Positions 1-6,841 of a stretch of DNA of 6,841 bases are shown here, one piece after another. A program made the position numbers and the translations under genes. Below the pieces are notes generated by a model. It was given only the letters and a program-made list of their open reading frames with translations, had not been told where the DNA came from and searched no databases. How positions within the stretch are numbered: position 1 is the first letter of the stretch; each line of letters starts with the position of its first letter. The stretch lies in the NCBI GenBank assembly GCA_905197385.1, contig CAJJYO010000088.1:1-6841 (forward strand), written 5' to 3'. The stretch comes from an uncultured Collinsella sp. (GTDB lineage Bacteria > Actinomycetota > Coriobacteriia > Coriobacteriales > Coriobacteriaceae).

Positions 1-1888
1 GCCCCACGCGGCGGGCGATGGCCTCGGCTGTCACACGGTTATCGCCGGTGAGCATGCGCACGTCGACGCCAAGCGAGCGCAGTGCGGCGATGGCTCCGGC
101 GCTCGTCTCCTTGACCTCGTCAGCCACGGCAATGGTGCCGGCAAGCTCGCCGTTCTTGGCAAAGAACAGCGGCGTCTTGCCCTTGGCGGCAAATTGCTCG
201 GCAAGGCCCGCGGGCACGGTAACGCCTAGCTCGTTCATCAGACGCACGTTACCAGCGGCGATGGTGTTTTGCCCCTCGCGTGCCGTAACGCCTCGCCCGG
301 GCACGGCGGCAAAGTCCTCGACGGCGCGTGCGACAATCCCTCGCGTCTCGCACTCGGCCATAATCGCCTCGGCCAGCGGGTGTTCGCTTGAGCGCTCCAG
401 CGCGGCGGCCCGCTTGAGCAGCGCCTTTTCGCTCATGGCGGGCGATCCGTCGGCGCGCGTGGCTACCACGATATCGGTCACGGCAGGCTTGCCGCGAGTG
501 ACCGTTCCCGTCTTATCGAGCACCACGGTGCCCACGCTGCGCAGATTCTCCAGCGCCTCGGCGCTCTTGAACAGAATGCCCATCTCGGCGCCCTTGCCGG
601 TGCCGACCATAATAGCGACGGGCGTGGCCAGACCCAATGCGCACGGACAGCTGATCACCAGCACAGCGACGGCGGAGGTGAGCGCTTCGTTCACGCTACC
701 GGTCAGTGCCATCCACGCCACGAAGGTCATGGCCGAGATCACGAATACCACGGGCACGAACACGCCGGCGACCTTGTCGGCCATGCGGGCGATGGGCGCC
801 TTGGTGGCGTTGGCGTCCTCGACGAGCTGGATAATCTTGGCGAGCGACGTGTCGGCGCCCACGCGTGTGGCGCGGAAGGCAAACGAGCCGGTGCGGTTGA
901 CAGTGGCGGCGTTGACGGTGTCGCCGGCGGTCTTTTCCACGGGGATGGACTCGCCGGTGAGCGCGCTCTCGTCCACGGCCGAGCTGCCCTCGAGCACCAC
1001 GCCATCGACAGGGATGGACTCGCCGGGGCGCACACGCAGCACCTGGCCGGGCAGAATGGCATCGACGTCGACGGGGGCCTCGCTGCCGTCCTCTGCCACG
1101 ACGGTCGCGGTCTTGGGTGCTAAGTCGATGAGCGCCTCGATAGCGCCGCCGGTCTTGGACTTGCTGCGCGTCTCGAGGTATTTGCCCACGGTGACGAGCG
1201 ACAGGATGGTGCCAGCGCTCTCAAAATACAGGTTGTCCATGCTCGTCATCATGGCCTCGTGCACCTGACCTGCGGCTAGCTGGTCGGCCATGATGAACAT
1301 GGCGTAGAGCGACCAGGCGATGGAGGCGGTGGCGCCCACGGCAATAAGGGCGTCCATGGTGGGCGCGCCGTGCGCGAGCGATTTAAACCCGTTGATAAAG
1401 TACGCGTCGTTGACGTAGACGATGGGAATGAGCAGGACGAGCTCGGTGAGCGCGAGCGTCATGCTGTGGGTGTGGTCGGTGAAGATGCCGGGCAGCGGCC
1501 AGCCGAGCATGTGCCCCATGCCTATGTAGAACAGTGGGATGAGGAATACGATCGAGACGATGAGGCGGGTGCGCATGGCAGAGGCGGCGGCCTCCAACTT
1601 TTTGGTCGGTGACTCCATATGGGCGGCGCCGGACCTGGCTTGCGCACTTCCGCTTTGGACAGCGTCGGTGCCCGTGCTGATGGGTGAGGCCGAGTAGCCC
1701 GCGCGGTCGACAGCGGTGCAGATGTCGTCGGGGGAGACCTGCGCAGGGTCGTAGTCCACCAGCATAGAGCCGGCGAGCAGATTGACCGCGACGCTTTGGA
1801 CGCCGTCGAGTTTGCTCACGGCGCGATCCACATGCGCCTGGCAGGCGGCGCATGTCATGCCGCCCACGTCGAACTTATCTTGAGCCAT
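1..1888 (-). CDS. copA: Copper-exporting P1B-type ATPase, C-terminus cut by window edge
   Basis: Integral membrane pump that should export Cu(I) (or Ag(I)) from the cytoplasm using ATP. 629 complete codons are visible. In order: one heavy-metal-associated domain with GMTCAAC (Cys13, Cys16); a linker at about residues 70-105; membrane helices near 107-125, 142-160, 176-200 and 217-233; the actuator loop with TGES (311-314); the metal-binding helix with CPC (414-416); the phosphorylation motif DKTGT (Asp458); the P1B-specific His-Pro pair (503-504); and TGDN (614-617). The GDGxND hinge and the last two helices lie beyond the left edge. The helices that would confirm Cu(I) specificity are therefore not visible, but one CxxC domain plus CPC strongly favours copper. 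The ATG start is set by AAAGGAG (1894-1900) five bases upstream. The gene stands alone behind its own promoter with a CsoR-like operator. Confidence 0.95.
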
Positions 1889-2040: not shown

Positions 2041-2097
2041 GTCTCAATCTGTAACATCTAGCCCAGTTTTTGCCGAGCTGCTGTTACAGAATGAGAC
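2041..2097 (+). repeat. 57-bp palindromic repeat, unit 1
   Basis: The arms are 2041-2056 and 2082-2097 and differ from perfect symmetry at one pair, arm position 7 (A opposite A). The centre starts TCTAG and contains TTTTTGCC, then GAGCTGC. It closely matches the centre of unit 6, so these two form one subfamily. Confidence 0.93.
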
Positions 2098-2120
2098 AAA
2101 CTCTCCGGCGGCAAATCAAT

Positions 2121-2177
2121 ATCTCGATCTGTAACATCTAGCGGGGAAAATGACCTCTAACTGTTACAGATTGAGAT
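2121..2177 (+). repeat. 57-bp palindromic repeat, unit 2
   Basis: The arms are 2121-2136 and 2162-2177. The outermost pair is A-T rather than the G-C of unit 1, with both sides changed. The single irregular pair is arm position 6 (G opposite T). The centre begins TCTAG and ends TCTAAC, and matches the centres of units 4 and 5. Confidence 0.93.
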
Positions 2178-2200
2178 TTTGTTTTGAGAGGTTTGAGTTT

Positions 2201-2257
2201 GTCTCCATCTGTAACAGTTAGACCGGTTTTTGGATTCCAGATGTTACAGATCGAGAC
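2201..2257 (-). repeat. 57-bp palindromic repeat, unit 3, inverted
   Basis: The arms are 2201-2216 and 2242-2257 with one mismatch, at arm position 6 (C opposite C). The inner flanks read GTTAG on the left and CCAGA on the right. This is the reverse-complement arrangement of units 2 and 4, so the unit lies in the opposite orientation to them. Confidence 0.9.
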
Positions 2258-2280
2258 GAACCTTCAGCAATAAACTCAAT

Positions 2281-2337
2281 ATCTCAATCTGTAACATCTG
2301 GCGGGAAATATGACCCCTTACTGTTACAGATCGAGAC
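2281..2337 (+). repeat. 57-bp palindromic repeat, unit 4
   Basis: The arms are 2281-2296 and 2322-2337, with two irregular pairs at arm positions 1 and 6 (both A opposite C on the plus strand). The centre begins TCTGGCGGG and ends TGACCCCTTAC, sharing its right half with unit 5. Confidence 0.93.
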
Positions 2338-2361
2338 AGACCGTCCGCGGCCAACTCAAAT

Positions 2362-2418
2362 GTCTTGATCTGTAACATCTAGAGAGGTTTTTGACCCCTT
2401 ACTGTTACAGATTGAGAT
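2362..2418 (+). repeat. 57-bp palindromic repeat, unit 5
   Basis: The arms are 2362-2377 and 2403-2418. All three deviations from symmetry (arm positions 1, 5 and 6) would be G-U wobbles if the plus strand were transcribed. The centre carries TCTAG, TTTTTGACC and CCTTAC. The interval before this unit is 24 rather than 23 bases. Confidence 0.92.
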
Positions 2419-2441
2419 GTTGTCTCGCGGGATTGGGGTTT

Positions 2442-2498
2442 GTCTCGTTCTGTAGCATCTAGACCTGTATCTGCCGAGCTAGTGTTACAAATCGAGAC
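2442..2498 (+). repeat. 57-bp palindromic repeat, unit 6
   Basis: The arms are 2442-2457 and 2483-2498, with three irregular pairs (arm positions 7, 9 and 14). This is among the most diverged copies. CTAG on both inner sides (starting 2459 and 2478) can extend the stem. The centre matches unit 1 (CTGCCGAGCT). Confidence 0.9.
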
Positions 2499-2540: not shown

Positions 2541-4625
2541 CTAGATACAGAATCCGGGGATCACACAGGTTAGCTTGTTTGGCTTTTCCGCAGGCGTTGC
2601 GTACGTAAAGACGTCGCCGTCGTGGCCCACACGGTTTATGTAGAGCGTGCCTTCGGTCTCCGATGAGTCGGGGCTCACCGTGCGCTCCCACCAGCAGGTG
2701 TCCTTGCCCTTCCACTGGCGGACCATCGTCTCGTTCGTGGAATACGGGCTCACCTTGAGCTCGCGGAAGAGCTGATACTCCTTGCCCTCGCCGTTGTAGA
2801 TTTCTGCCAGGTAGTGATAGTCCTTGGCAAACGAATCGGGCGGTTGCGTACCGCACAGCTCGACCATGGCGGGCAGCCAAAGGGTTGCGGGCAACTCGCT
2901 CAGACACGATGCACTGTTGGCGGCGCCAGCGTTATTCGAGACCTTTTTGACAGATTTGATGAGCGCGCGCAACTCGTTGGGCAGCAGCTTAAGGCCGTCG
3001 CTGTCGAGCCATTCCCGCAGCTCGCAATCTGCCCAGCCGGCGCTCGGCGGTTCAGCCGCAGCGTTGCGCTCGGCAATGCCCGCATCGAACATAAACGTCA
3101 GTCCGGCCTTGCCCGTCCCGTCCAGAAGCTCATCGTGACGGATGCCCACAAGCTGCGCGCCGACCTCCAGCCCGTTGGCGAGCTTCACACGCTTGGTGCA
3201 CGGATAGGGGATATGCCCATCAGTGTCGAGCAGGTGGTAGCGCTTGGCAATCTCGCGTGCCTCGCTACGGGTCTCGGCGGCCTTAATCTTGAGCGAAATT
3301 TCCTGCAGCTGATCCCAGGCGTAGTCGTCAAGTGAACCGCGGATGCCGTCCAGGTAGTCGGGGATGCCAAAGCCATGGGTTGCCGCCCCGATAACACCGA
3401 GCCCCGCAACGGCTGCAACGACGCCGCCGATGACAAAGCGGCGGCGGGTCATGGCATCGTGACGGGCCTGCTCCAGGATCTCTCGTGCGCGCTCGCCGGC
3501 GACATCGACCTTAAGGTGCGTGCCAGAATCGATATCAATTGCGGCCTCGTCTCCTGCGCCCTCGCGGTCCTCGGATTCTGCAGCGGGGAGGTATGCCGAG
3601 AGCGCCTCGAGCATCTGCTGCTCGGTGGGACGATCGCCCTGTTCAACCGAGATGCCTTTCATGATGATCTGGACAAGCGCCTTGTCGTCCTCGCAGCGCG
3701 GCTCGAGCGGTGCCGGTTTGGTCTTGGTCTTTATGAGGTAGAACGAGCCGGTTGCCGCGGCACCCGTCGACTCGACATCGAATGGTTTGCGGCCGCTGTA
3801 GAGCTGGTACAGAATGCTCGAAAGCGCATAGACGTCGATCGCGGGCGAGCGGCGAAGGGCCGCGATGCCTTCGATATCCTGCGTGAGCATTTCGGGCGCG
3901 GCATATGCGGGTGTGGCAAAACGCCAAATGTCGGCACGTCGGGTGATTGTGTCGTCGCCGAGTGCCATGGTCGCGGAGCCCATGTCGATGAGGCAGGGGT
4001 CAAAGGAGCAATCGGCAATCTGCTGCTCGAGCGTTCGGCTGGTGGTGCGGAACATGATATTGGCAGGCGACAGGTCGCGATGGATGACCGGATTCACGAG
4101 GCCTTGGGTCATCAAGAGCGCGCGAAGCACGGCGTTTCCGACGGCGGCGACCATCTGAGTGGTCAGCCCGCCCGAGGCGTCGTGCGGAAGCAAGGGCAGC
4201 GCCTGCTTGAGCGAGGTGCCCTCGACCCACTCCATGAGGATGAGCGGGTCATCCTCGCACGATCCGTAGCCATAGACGCGCGGAAATCCGCGCAGGTGCG
4301 AGACGGTACACAGATGACGATACTCCTCGAACAGCGCGGCGGTGTTGGCCAGGTGAGCGGCCGATTGCTCGGCGGAGCGGTCGGGGGCTTGGCCGGAAAG
4401 GATGGCGTTGTCCTTGAGTAGCTTGACGGCAAAGACCTCGCCGCTCGTGTTGGTCGCGCGCAGCACGTGCCCGATGTTGCCGTTGTTGCGGTGGGCCGTC
4501 TGGAGAATAAGCGTCATAAACCGACGCTTGGCGTCGTCCTCGGCGCTGGGGTCGACCGCCACGGCGGTGTCGAACGTGTCAAGACGGATGAGTTTGTCGC
4601 CATAGGCGCTATCGGTAGTATCCAT
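2541..4625 (-). CDS. Membrane-anchored Hanks-type Ser/Thr protein kinase with DUF6273-like sensor domain
   Basis: A 694-residue signalling kinase. The cytoplasmic kinase domain (about 35-345) has a degenerate glycine loop GNIGHV (49-54), the ATP-anchoring Lys68 in AVK, a likely helix-C Glu100/101, HRDLSPAN with Asp184 and Asn189, DMG in place of DFG (214-216), APE (243-245), Asp264 and Arg332. All catalytic residues are present, so it should be active. Thr226, Thr228 and Thr238 in the activation loop are candidate phosphosites. One membrane helix spans about 397-416. It is followed by an extracytoplasmic domain with GW-x-LREWL (530-540), WLPA (583-586) and a C-terminal IPGFCI, which I read as DUF6273. 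This part contains seven cysteines. The ATG start has AAAGGA (4631-4636) five bases upstream. An in-frame ATG at 4712 would add 29 residues encoded inside an inverted repeat and is unlikely. The gene lies downstream of and co-directional with the FHA gene. Confidence 0.93.
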   Translation of the reverse strand: MDTTDSAYGDKLIRLDTFDTAVAVDPSAEDDAKRRFMTLILQTAHRNNGNIGHVLRATNTSGEVFAVKLLKDNAILSGQAPDRSAEQSAAHLANTAALFEEYRHLCTVSHLRGFPRVYGYGSCEDDPLILMEWVEGTSLKQALPLLPHDASGGLTTQMVAAVGNAVLRALLMTQGLVNPVIHRDLSPANIMFRTTSRTLEQQIADCSFDPCLIDMGSATMALGDDTITRRADIWRFATPAYAAPEMLTQDIEGIAALRRSPAIDVYALSSILYQLYSGRKPFDVESTGAAATGSFYLIKTKTKPAPLEPRCEDDKALVQIIMKGISVEQGDRPTEQQMLEALSAYLPAAESEDREGAGDEAAIDIDSGTHLKVDVAGERAREILEQARHDAMTRRRFVIGGVVAAVAGLGVIGAATHGFGIPDYLDGIRGSLDDYAWDQLQEISLKIKAAETRSEAREIAKRYHLLDTDGHIPYPCTKRVKLANGLEVGAQLVGIRHDELLDGTGKAGLTFMFDAGIAERNAAAEPPSAGWADCELREWLDSDGLKLLPNELRALIKSVKKVSNNAGAANSASCLSELPATLWLPAMVELCGTQPPDSFAKDYHYLAEIYNGEGKEYQLFRELKVSPYSTNETMVRQWKGKDTCWWERTVSPDSSETEGTLYINRVGHDGDVFTYATPAEKPNKLTCVIPGFCI

Positions 4626-4657
4626 GGCGTTCCTTTGTCTGGCATGGGTTGCTGCGC

Positions 4658-4718
4658 GTATACGTGGGCAGTGTGGATATCGGTAAAGTACCATGATAGC
4701 CACACTGCCCACGTATAC
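4658..4718. repeat. Inverted repeat, 19-bp perfect arms, between FHA and kinase genes
   Basis: GTATACGTGGGCAGTGTGG (4658-4676) is repeated in reverse complement at 4700-4718. After one mismatch, a further four pairs follow (TATC 4678-4681 with GATA 4695-4698). GGTA and TACC (4682-4685, 4689-4692) can then close on a three-base loop. The 61-base hairpin ends about 20 bases before the kinase Shine-Dalgarno sequence on the minus strand. There is no T tract on either side, so it is not a classical terminator. It may be an mRNA stabiliser or processing site, or a DNA-level palindrome. Confidence 0.93.
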
Positions 4719-4740: not shown

Positions 4741-4799
4741 CGCAGAAGGTAGAAGACGAAAGACGGACGGCGACCGTCTTTCGTCTTCTACCTTCTGCG
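4741..4799. repeat. Inverted repeat, 26-bp perfect arms, at FHA gene stop codon
   Basis: The arms 4741-4766 and 4774-4799 are perfect reverse complements across 26 bases (CGCAGAAGGTAGAAGACG and onward), with a seven-base loop ACGGCGA. The right arm abuts the FHA stop codon (4800-4802), so the hairpin opens directly after translation ends on the minus strand. No T run follows in either direction, which argues against intrinsic termination. A 12-base palindrome, GTCGTTTACGAC (4730-4741), touches its left end. Confidence 0.95.
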
Positions 4800-5762
4800 C
4801 TAGTCCACAATGACAAGGAATGTCGTGTAGAGACCCAGATGGAGCCTGTCGCTGTTTTCGATTTCCACCGGGGGATAGACTTTGCCGGGCTCGCGTTGGT
4901 CGCGCGGCGGCTCGATTACGATATCGCCGTCGCCCGCGCCCGATTTGAGCACTGTGCCGTTGGTCGACCCAAGGCCCTGGGCGTACCAGTGTCCGCCTTC
5001 GAGCCAAATGCGGAGATGCTCGCGCGATGCATCAGCGCCTACATCGGTGATGCTGGGCGAGGTTTTGGGCAAGGACCCAATTACCGTGCCGCGCGGATCG
5101 CGTGTGAGGGGATGGATTTGCATGTCGGCGCAGTTGTCGGCATGGGTTCTGAGCAGACCGAGGTTGGGGGCGACAGTGCGCGGCTGCTCCAGGCTGCTCA
5201 TAAAGCCACGTCCGACGGTAGTTTCGGTGGTGCCAAAGTGCCCGCCTGTCTTGCTGTCGCAAAAGCGCTCGACGGTGGCCACGCCTTGGATGGGGTCAGC
5301 GAGCGCCCCCGTTGCCACAAAGAGCATAAGGTAAAGCGTACTCTTCTCGCGCACGGCATTGCCGTCAAAGTTGTCGATGTGATTGAGGGCATTTGCATAT
5401 AGGCAGCTGTCCAGCTTGTAGCTGGCGAGAGCCGACATCATTTCGTTGGCGGCCGGGCCGCGATAGTGCTCGGCGATTGCCTGATAGGCGGACTCGCCGC
5501 CGCCGAGCTTGCTGTAGATTGCCGCGGAAAGATTGAGCGTGGTGACGGCAAAGTCGCTGTAGATGGCGGGCGCGCACTGGTCAGGCTCGCGATGGACGAT
5601 GTAACGGGTGAGATACGAGCGGTTGGAAGAGCATTTCTCGAGCAGGGTACTGCCGAGATAAGAGTTTCCATTGATGAGCATTCGGGCGATCTCGAGATGT
5701 CTAAGACCGCCGAACGAGCGAATATCGTTATAGAGGACCGAGCAAGGTGTCTCTGCTGCCAC
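4800..5762 (-). CDS. FHA-domain protein, probable partner of the adjacent kinase
   Basis: 320 residues. The C-terminal forkhead-associated domain (about 225-320) is recognised from SREH (246-249), W259, GSTNGT (265-270) and the closing strands around 302-320. FHA domains bind phosphothreonine peptides, and the co-directional kinase downstream is the obvious source of such marks. The usual first-strand Gly-Arg reads Gly229-Ser230, so the arginine that normally contacts phosphate appears absent; Lys233 is nearby. The N-terminal 220 residues are mostly helical-looking, contain several cysteines, and match no family I recognise. No signal peptide or membrane helix is evident, so it is probably cytoplasmic. 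I chose the GTG start at 5762 because AAAGGAGG (5768-5775) lies five bases upstream. A TTG at 5792 would place that ribosome-binding site inside the gene. Confidence 0.88.
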   Translation of the reverse strand: MAAETPCSVLYNDIRSFGGLRHLEIARMLINGNSYLGSTLLEKCSSNRSYLTRYIVHREPDQCAPAIYSDFAVTTLNLSAAIYSKLGGGESAYQAIAEHYRGPAANEMMSALASYKLDSCLYANALNHIDNFDGNAVREKSTLYLMLFVATGALADPIQGVATVERFCDSKTGGHFGTTETTVGRGFMSSLEQPRTVAPNLGLLRTHADNCADMQIHPLTRDPRGTVIGSLPKTSPSITDVGADASREHLRIWLEGGHWYAQGLGSTNGTVLKSGAGDGDIVIEPPRDQREPGKVYPPVEIENSDRLHLGLYTTFLVIVD

Positions 5763-5783
5763 GGATACCTCCTTTGATTGCTT

Positions 5784-5804
5784 CCTAGCCAATAAGGCGA
5801 TAGG
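5784..5804. promoter_or_regulatory. Small hairpin in the FHA leader
   Basis: CCTAGCC and GGC-GA-TAGG can pair around AATAA, giving a 7-bp stem with a two-base bulge. It sits about ten bases upstream of the FHA Shine-Dalgarno sequence. It could affect translation initiation, but it is short and may be chance. Confidence 0.25.
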
Positions 5805-5941: not shown

Positions 5942-5998
5942 GTCTTGTTCTGTAACAATTAGGACCGATTTTACTCGGTAACTGTTACAGATTGAGAC
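5942..5998 (+). repeat. 57-bp palindromic repeat, unit 7
   Basis: Same family and length as the copies at 2041-2498. The arms are 5942-5957 and 5983-5998, with irregular pairs at arm positions 5-7. The centre carries a small extra hairpin, CCGATTTTACTCGG. It lies upstream of the FHA promoter. Confidence 0.92.
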
Positions 5999-6022
5999 GT
6001 TTGTGAATCGTGTCGACCGTTT

Positions 6023-6079
6023 GTCTCGATCTGTAACACGTAGAGGAAGATTTGCCCTGCAGATGTTACAGATTGAGAC
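6023..6079 (-). repeat. 57-bp palindromic repeat, unit 8, inverted
   Basis: The arms are 6023-6038 and 6064-6079, with one irregular pair at arm position 6 (G opposite T). The right inner flank CAGA places it in the same orientation as unit 3. It starts 81 bases after unit 7 with a 24-base interval, repeating the geometry of the larger array. Confidence 0.92.
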
Positions 6080-6341: not shown

Positions 6342-6841
6342 ATGCGTAATTCTGTATCCGACGTCACCGACGCCGAGATCCTGGACGAGACCCGCGAGGC
6401 CATGACCCAGGCTGCCTTCGATGCGGCCGATGAGGCCAATGCTGCCCAGGCCGTCGAGTCCGCTACCGAGAGCCTGCCCGCCTTTGACGAGCTGGGCCTT
6501 TCCGACGAGATGCTTCGTGCTATCGAGAACCTGGGCTACACGGCGCCGACGCCTGTTCAGGCCGGCTCGATTCCTGTGGTGCTCGAAGGCCGCGACCTGC
6601 TTGCCGCCGCTCAGACTGGCACCGGCAAGACGGCCGCTTTCTTGCTGCCGACCATGAACAACCTGGAGCACATCGCTCCGCCCAAGCCTGTGCGCGAGCG
6701 CAGCGGCCGCAACCGCCGTCGCGGCGCTAAAAAGCCCGAGGGCAACGGCCGCGGCCCCGTGATGCTCGTCATCACCCCCACGCGCGAGCTTGCCCAGCAG
6801 ATCGACGAGGTCGCGAGCAAGATCGCCGACGTCACCGGTCA
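6342..6841 (+). CDS. DEAD-box ATP-dependent RNA helicase, N-terminal part
   Basis: 166 complete codons are visible; the right edge cuts the gene. DEAD-box proteins unwind short RNA duplexes with ATP, in ribosome assembly, mRNA decay or cold adaptation. After a 45-residue acidic, alanine-rich N-terminal extension come the Q motif (Phe48, then GYTAPTPVQ, Gln73), motif I AQTGTGKT (90-97, Lys96 of the Walker A loop) and motif Ia PTREL (146-150). The DEAD, SAT and C-terminal helicase motifs lie outside the window, so the subfamily (RhlE-, DeaD- or CshA-like) cannot be fixed. A basic Arg/Lys/Gly/Pro-rich insert (about 112-139) separates motifs I and Ia and is longer than in the Escherichia coli enzymes. 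The ATG start is supported by AAGGA about 11 bases upstream. The gene is divergent from the FHA-kinase unit. Confidence 0.93.

What the first reader, a model, noticed from the sequence alone, without database searches (positions are those of the whole stretch)
2041..2498. Six exact-length 57-bp palindromes on a strict 80-bp period
Unit starts fall at 2041, 2121, 2201, 2281, 2362 and 2442: steps of 80, 80, 80, 81, 80. Every unit is 57 bases with 16-base arms and a 25-base centre, although centres and intervals have diverged a lot. Length and spacing are kept better than sequence, which is unusual for neutral decay of tandem duplications. It suggests that geometry matters, for a DNA-binding protein, a structured transcript or a transposition substrate. 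I recognise no named family.
Basis: seen in the sequence. Interest (0 to 1): 0.75.

Follow-up and report, generated by a model that had tools for sequence, protein, structure and literature searches.

The report
Palindromes paired with a dedicated nuclease
Gut Collinsella bacteria carry dozens of DNA palindromes of almost always exactly 57 bases between their genes, and the same palindromes sit on both sides of one gene for a predicted DNA-cutting protein that likely binds them; related genes in other actinobacteria are often flanked by matching palindromes of their own, which points to an apparently undescribed two-part genetic system that is possibly mobile.

Summary
In detail: six 57-bp palindromes at the stated places, plus two at 5942 and 6023. 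In Collinsella 320 of 325 units keep a 25-bp centre and 193 of 201 steps are 80 or 81 bp. Arms are conserved and do not covary, and the centre avoids pairing, so a structured RNA is unlikely. Units flank one gene on both sides in 16 of 16 loci with both flanks readable. It encodes a 364-aa protein with an AbiEi-like half and a half folded like homing nuclease I-Bth0305I; its orthologue is in 18 of 21 unit-bearing genomes and 0 of 21 others. Relatives are flanked by different palindromes: 5 of 12, 10 of 18 and 7 of 15 loci, against 2 of 300 random genes. Three such families have near-fixed length genome-wide. I read the units as sites, and likely substrates, of a nuclease, in a system resembling REPIN-RAYT with another enzyme. 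Binding, cutting and movement are inferred. Nine searches of open-access papers found no report of this pairing.

The parts
2041..2097 (.). 57-bp palindromic unit 1 of array A
2121..2177 (.). 57-bp palindromic unit 2 of array A
2201..2257 (.). 57-bp palindromic unit 3 of array A (resembles unit 2 in reverse complement)
2281..2337 (.). 57-bp palindromic unit 4 of array A
2362..2418 (.). 57-bp palindromic unit 5 of array A
2442..2498 (.). 57-bp palindromic unit 6 of array A (2 mismatches in the 9-bp cores)
5942..5998 (.). 57-bp palindromic unit 7, array B
6023..6079 (.). 57-bp palindromic unit 8, array B
2..1888 (-). flanking gene of array A: heavy-metal P-type ATPase (cut by the window end)
   Evidence: Pfam HMA, E1-E2_ATPase
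2541..4712 (-). flanking gene of array A: protein kinase with DUF6273 domain (longest reading frame; start uncertain)
4800..5792 (-). flanking gene of array B: FHA-domain protein (longest reading frame)
6342..6841 (+). flanking gene of array B: DEAD-box helicase (cut by the window end)

Best explanation
The 57-bp units are likely the two-armed DNA sites, and possibly the substrates, of a predicted AbiEi-like/nuclease fusion protein whose gene is flanked by the same units on both sides elsewhere in these Collinsella chromosomes. Inferred mechanism: two copies of the protein bind one unit, one winged-helix domain on each arm; the bridge between them would fix the 25-bp centre and 57-bp length. 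The Vsr-like nuclease half would then nick or cut at the palindrome, and repair or recombination would copy or delete whole units in register. Protein and palindromes together would form a two-part element that behaves like REPIN plus RAYT but uses a different enzyme. Shown by calls: unit geometry and conservation, the flanking in 16 of 16 loci, co-occurrence of gene and units, repetition of the pattern around part of the relatives with other palindromes, and three genomes where the gene is missing with one or two units left. Inferred: binding, dimer bridging, cutting, movement.
Confidence: 0.6

Rival explanations
1. Operator sites only: the AbiEi-like protein is a repressor that binds the units to control its own gene and neighbours of the other arrays; the nuclease half is inactive or serves defence, and nothing moves.
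For: AbiEi proteins are autorepressors that bind inverted repeats (PMC7319586 abstract and passages). The upstream unit ends 2 nt from the longest reading frame's start in 10 of 15 loci. Arms are conserved in orthologous units.
Against: Units also lie directly downstream of the gene (8-41 bp after the stop in 15 of 15 loci). The 18 arrays of G006 lie in all gene orientations and beside genes that look unrelated by eye. Array size varies from 1 to 6 at one locus.
Confidence: 0.24
2. Decoy or protection: the nuclease is harmful and the many intact units soak it up or are the only sites where it is harmless, so cells that keep the gene must keep units.
For: Both 9-bp cores are intact in 37 of 43 G006 units; AbiEi relatives are antitoxins of a toxin-antitoxin system.
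Against: Three genomes without the gene still keep 28-34 exact units; no toxin partner seen next to the gene in G006: neighbours are an amidohydrolase and a protein without Pfam match.
Confidence: 0.07
3. The units are ordinary REPINs moved by a RAYT (Y1 transposase) of the genome.
For: All 22 unit-bearing genomes in that draw have a Y1_Tnp gene, and unit anatomy resembles REPINs (PMC3116915 passages).
Against: The G006 Y1 gene at 759716-760507 is flanked by another repeat (ATTGGGGACAGACT type, about 15 copies); no unit lies within 6 kb of either Y1 gene. Y1 genes also occur in unit-free genomes.
Confidence: 0.04
4. Structured RNA or terminator elements selected for hairpin formation.
For: 16-bp complementary arms.
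Against: No arm covariation (z -1.1), centre pairs less than chance (z -6.6); no Rfam match in the window; intervals are about as fixed in length as units.
Confidence: 0.03
5. A decayed 80-bp tandem duplication without function.
For: Array A has a period of 80 bp, and copies two periods apart are alike.
Against: Arms are conserved while centres diverge, single units occur far from others (4 of 18 arrays in G006), and the centre is 25 bp in 320 of 325 units.
Confidence: 0.02

Closest known systems
REPIN-RAYT (REP doublets with TnpA-REP)
   Same: Inverted 16-mer ends, spacer kept in length, intergenic, some tandem clusters, clusters beside the RAYT genes with a separate family for each (PMC3116915 passages).
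   Different: Enzyme is an AbiEi-like/Vsr-like fusion instead of a Y1 HUH transposase; this family has no compensatory changes and its centre avoids pairing; G006 holds a Y1 gene with its own repeat.
AbiEi antitoxins and their operators (type IV AbiE, Rv2827c)
   Different: A nuclease half is fused on, no toxin neighbour was seen in G006, palindromes lie on both sides of the gene and in 16 other arrays of G006.
EDxHD/Vsr-like homing endonucleases (I-Bth0305I)
   Different: Sits between palindromic repeats in intergenic DNA; no homing shown.
BIME arrays of REP elements
   Same: Regularly spaced palindromes in alternating orientations (abstract of PMC2817692 in the listing).
   Different: Unit length, spacing and associated enzyme.

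Membership tests
REPIN-RAYT | Cognate enzyme is a Y1/HUH transposase flanked by the repeats | tested here: not met
   No unit within 6 kb of either Y1 gene of G006; the one at 759716 has its own repeat; units flank the AbiEi-like/nuclease gene instead. Other genomes' Y1 genes were not examined
REPIN-RAYT | Two inverted conserved ends with a spacer of fixed length | tested here: met
   320 of 325 units with 25-bp centre
REPIN-RAYT | Compensatory changes that keep a hairpin | tested here: not met
   This family: none in arms, fewer pairs than chance in the centre. Two sister families do show paired changes
REPIN-RAYT | Mobility of the repeat | not testable with these tools
   No reads or population data
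AbiE type IV toxin-antitoxin | AbiEi-like two-domain fold | tested here: inconclusive
AbiE type IV toxin-antitoxin | Adjacent AbiEii (DUF1814) toxin gene | tested here: not met
   Checked in G006 only: neighbours are an amidohydrolase and a 235-aa protein without Pfam match at E 0.001
EDxHD/Vsr-like (PD-(D/E)XK) nuclease | Nuclease fold with conserved acidic residues and lysine | tested here: inconclusive
MITE | Target-site duplication and a transposase with the same ends | not tested
   Not examined systematically; W-rich bases flank units on both sides

The most novel reading that the evidence does not exclude
A phylum-wide class of two-part elements in Actinomycetota: each AbiEi-like/Vsr-like nuclease gene is bracketed by, and spreads or maintains, its own family of fixed-length palindromes, a counterpart of REPIN-RAYT that arose independently from a toxin-antitoxin-type DNA-binding protein and a homing-type nuclease.
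Probability: 0.45. Interest if true: 0.92.

Novelty: categorically new. Interest (0 to 1): 0.85.

Why it matters
If true, bacterial palindromic repeats have at least two unrelated enzyme partners, and a large set of proteins now called hypothetical or AbiEi-like would gain predictable DNA targets: the palindrome beside each gene. That makes it directly testable what such repeats do, and it would offer a supply of nuclease-site pairs with rigid spacing rules.

Tried and rejected
RAYT as the mover: disfavoured because no unit lies near the Y1 genes of G006 and one of them has another repeat. RNA element: disfavoured. Whole-genome search of the window's own assembly: not held. Origin/terminus function: GC skew of G006 shows the arrays unevenly spread but without a clear rule; not pursued. 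Regulon: neighbour genes of the 18 arrays look unrelated by eye; convergent gene pairs hold 7 of 18 arrays against 142 of 924 gaps of 100 bp or more, noted but not pursued.

Limits and dropped rows. My own gene finder missed the 364-aa gene, which was found by listing ORFs between two arrays; 'intergenic' rests on that finder. One low-scoring unit of 44 in G006 (1666977) was dropped as chance. In one search two units with assigned gaps 35 and 40 are probably pairing errors of the script and are counted as misses, as are gaps 24 (1) and 26 (2). For array A, two weak matches without units (L260, 69% over 341 bp; L261, 33 bp) were left out of the 17; for array B, L277 and L278 (30-36 bp matches) were left out of the 15. 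In one search locus L326 had no usable match and was dropped, so 18 of 19 order loci were counted. L294 and L295 are cut by contig ends and show units only on the readable side. Row L343 of the last table was computed with a wrong orientation flag and is not used. The 500 random genes include the 67-bp relative itself, so 10 of 499 others reach 14. Swapped-flank controls also had hits (8 of 306; 3 of 210); some may be real sharing, since loci L322 and L327 carry the same palindrome arms. One search warns that a family not listed is not excluded.

Full report
Observation. The window holds eight 57-bp units, six in array A (2041-2498) and two in array B (5942-6079), with arms of 16 bp and centres of 25 bp. 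The pattern was not found in 200 shuffles. Array A lies between a heavy-metal ATPase gene and a kinase gene, array B between an FHA gene and a DEAD-box helicase gene.

Distribution. In whole genomes, 23 of 43 of the genus carry exact-core units (18-47 each, one genome with a single unit) and 12 of 149 of the order, all 12 of them also in the genus list. The window's array A is nearly identical to that of G012 (L250), so I take the window to be Collinsella. In the single-contig genome G006 there are 43 units in 18 intergenic arrays of 1-5.

Geometry and conservation. 320 of 325 units have a 25-bp centre and 193 of 201 spacings are 80 or 81 bp; orthologous units of related genomes are counted each time. 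The consensus is RTCTCRATCTGTAACANNTAG, six variable bases, WWW, and the mirror image. Arms vary little within orthologous clusters (0.04), centres more (0.13). At array A, 17 of 17 clade loci keep at least one unit, 1 to 6 in number, mostly in 80/81 steps; at array B, 13 of 15 keep a 57-bp unit, one has a 26-bp centre and one has none. Symmetric positions in the arms do not covary; the centre has fewer complementary pairs than expected (430 against 538, sd 16, 120 representatives). This argues for reading as double-stranded DNA and against selection for an extended hairpin.

The gene. Between two arrays of G006 lies a 364-aa reading frame that my gene finder had missed. Its orthologue occurs in 18 of 21 genomes rich in units and in 0 of 21 others, 20 without exact units and one with a single unit. 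All 16 loci with both flanks in the contig have units on both sides; two loci at contig ends have them on the readable side. The fit is tight: the next unit begins 8-41 bp after the stop in the 15 loci measured. In G005, G008 and G009 the gene is missing and the same neighbours enclose one unit, or two in G009. The G005 and G008 units differ by one base; a unit like them (11 mismatches of 57 or fewer) lies next to the gene on one side in 11 of 15 filled loci, and one with 2-4 mismatches lies on the other side in 5 of 15 (both sides in 4). This fits deletion or insertion in register with a unit; the direction is not known.

The pattern repeats. A 28%-identical relative in G006 is flanked by a different palindrome, of which 19 of 21 genome-wide copies are exactly 67 bp. 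In G061 and G102 the palindrome beside the relative has 15 and 6 exact-arm copies, all with a 28-bp gap. By a fixed criterion (inverted repeats on both flanks that share a 9-mer in their arms), 14 of 15 orthologues, 5 of 12 Collinsella relatives, 10 of 18 order-level loci, 2 of 4 further loci and 7 of 15 distant relatives pass, against 2 of 300 random G006 genes; swapped flanks pass in 0 of 132, 8 of 306 and 3 of 210 pairs. The random-gene control comes from one genome only. A word-sharing test agrees: 7 of 13 loci share 17 or more bases, 0 of 156 swapped pairs share 14 or more, 11 of 500 random genes do, one of them the 67-bp relative itself. Relatives were found in 35 of 100 genomes of the order and 28 of 296 of the phylum, with matches fading to E 1e-10. 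Not every family is abundant: 2 exact-arm copies in G042, 3 in G095. In the 67-bp and 54-bp families a short inner segment changes on both arms together, as described for REPINs (passages of PMC3116915); the 57-bp family does not do this.

Interpretation. The anatomy works like REPIN-RAYT, but the defining enzyme was tested in G006 and is different, so I do not file it there. It is not filed as an AbiE toxin-antitoxin locus either, for lack of a toxin neighbour in G006. The most economical reading is a nuclease with its own two-armed sites. Binding, cutting and movement remain to be shown. Literature searches (open-access full texts only, listings seen) found no paper that links such proteins to palindromic repeats; of the papers I saw passages of PMC7319586, PMC3116915 and PMC8266576 and otherwise only listings.

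Noticed in passing
window 4658-4718 and 4741-4799: Two further long palindromes of other sequence (arms 24 nt, 96% complementary, 13 nt apart; arms 29 nt, 97% complementary, 1 nt apart) lie around the start of the kinase gene and between it and the FHA gene.
   Followed up: no
G006 759716-760507 (L164/L165): A Y1 transposase gene with its own flanking repeat of the ATTGGGGACAGACT type, about 15 copies.
   Followed up: partly
G006 genome-wide: Other abundant repeats such as the 14-mers CCTTTGTGGTGGTT (40 copies) and GACAGGTTTATTTT (27 copies).
   Followed up: no
L218:8657-10155: A Mutator-type transposase gene lies between a truncated unit half and a full unit, as if it had inserted into a unit.
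   Followed up: partly
L304:1165-1228 and 2555-2616: The palindrome of a 34%-identical relative contains GTTTGTCTC like the border of many 57-bp units, hinting at related sites for related proteins.
   Followed up: no
G037: A single exact unit in a genome otherwise without exact units.
   Followed up: no
L243-L259: Some units look like recombinants of neighbouring units' halves, by eye.
   Followed up: no
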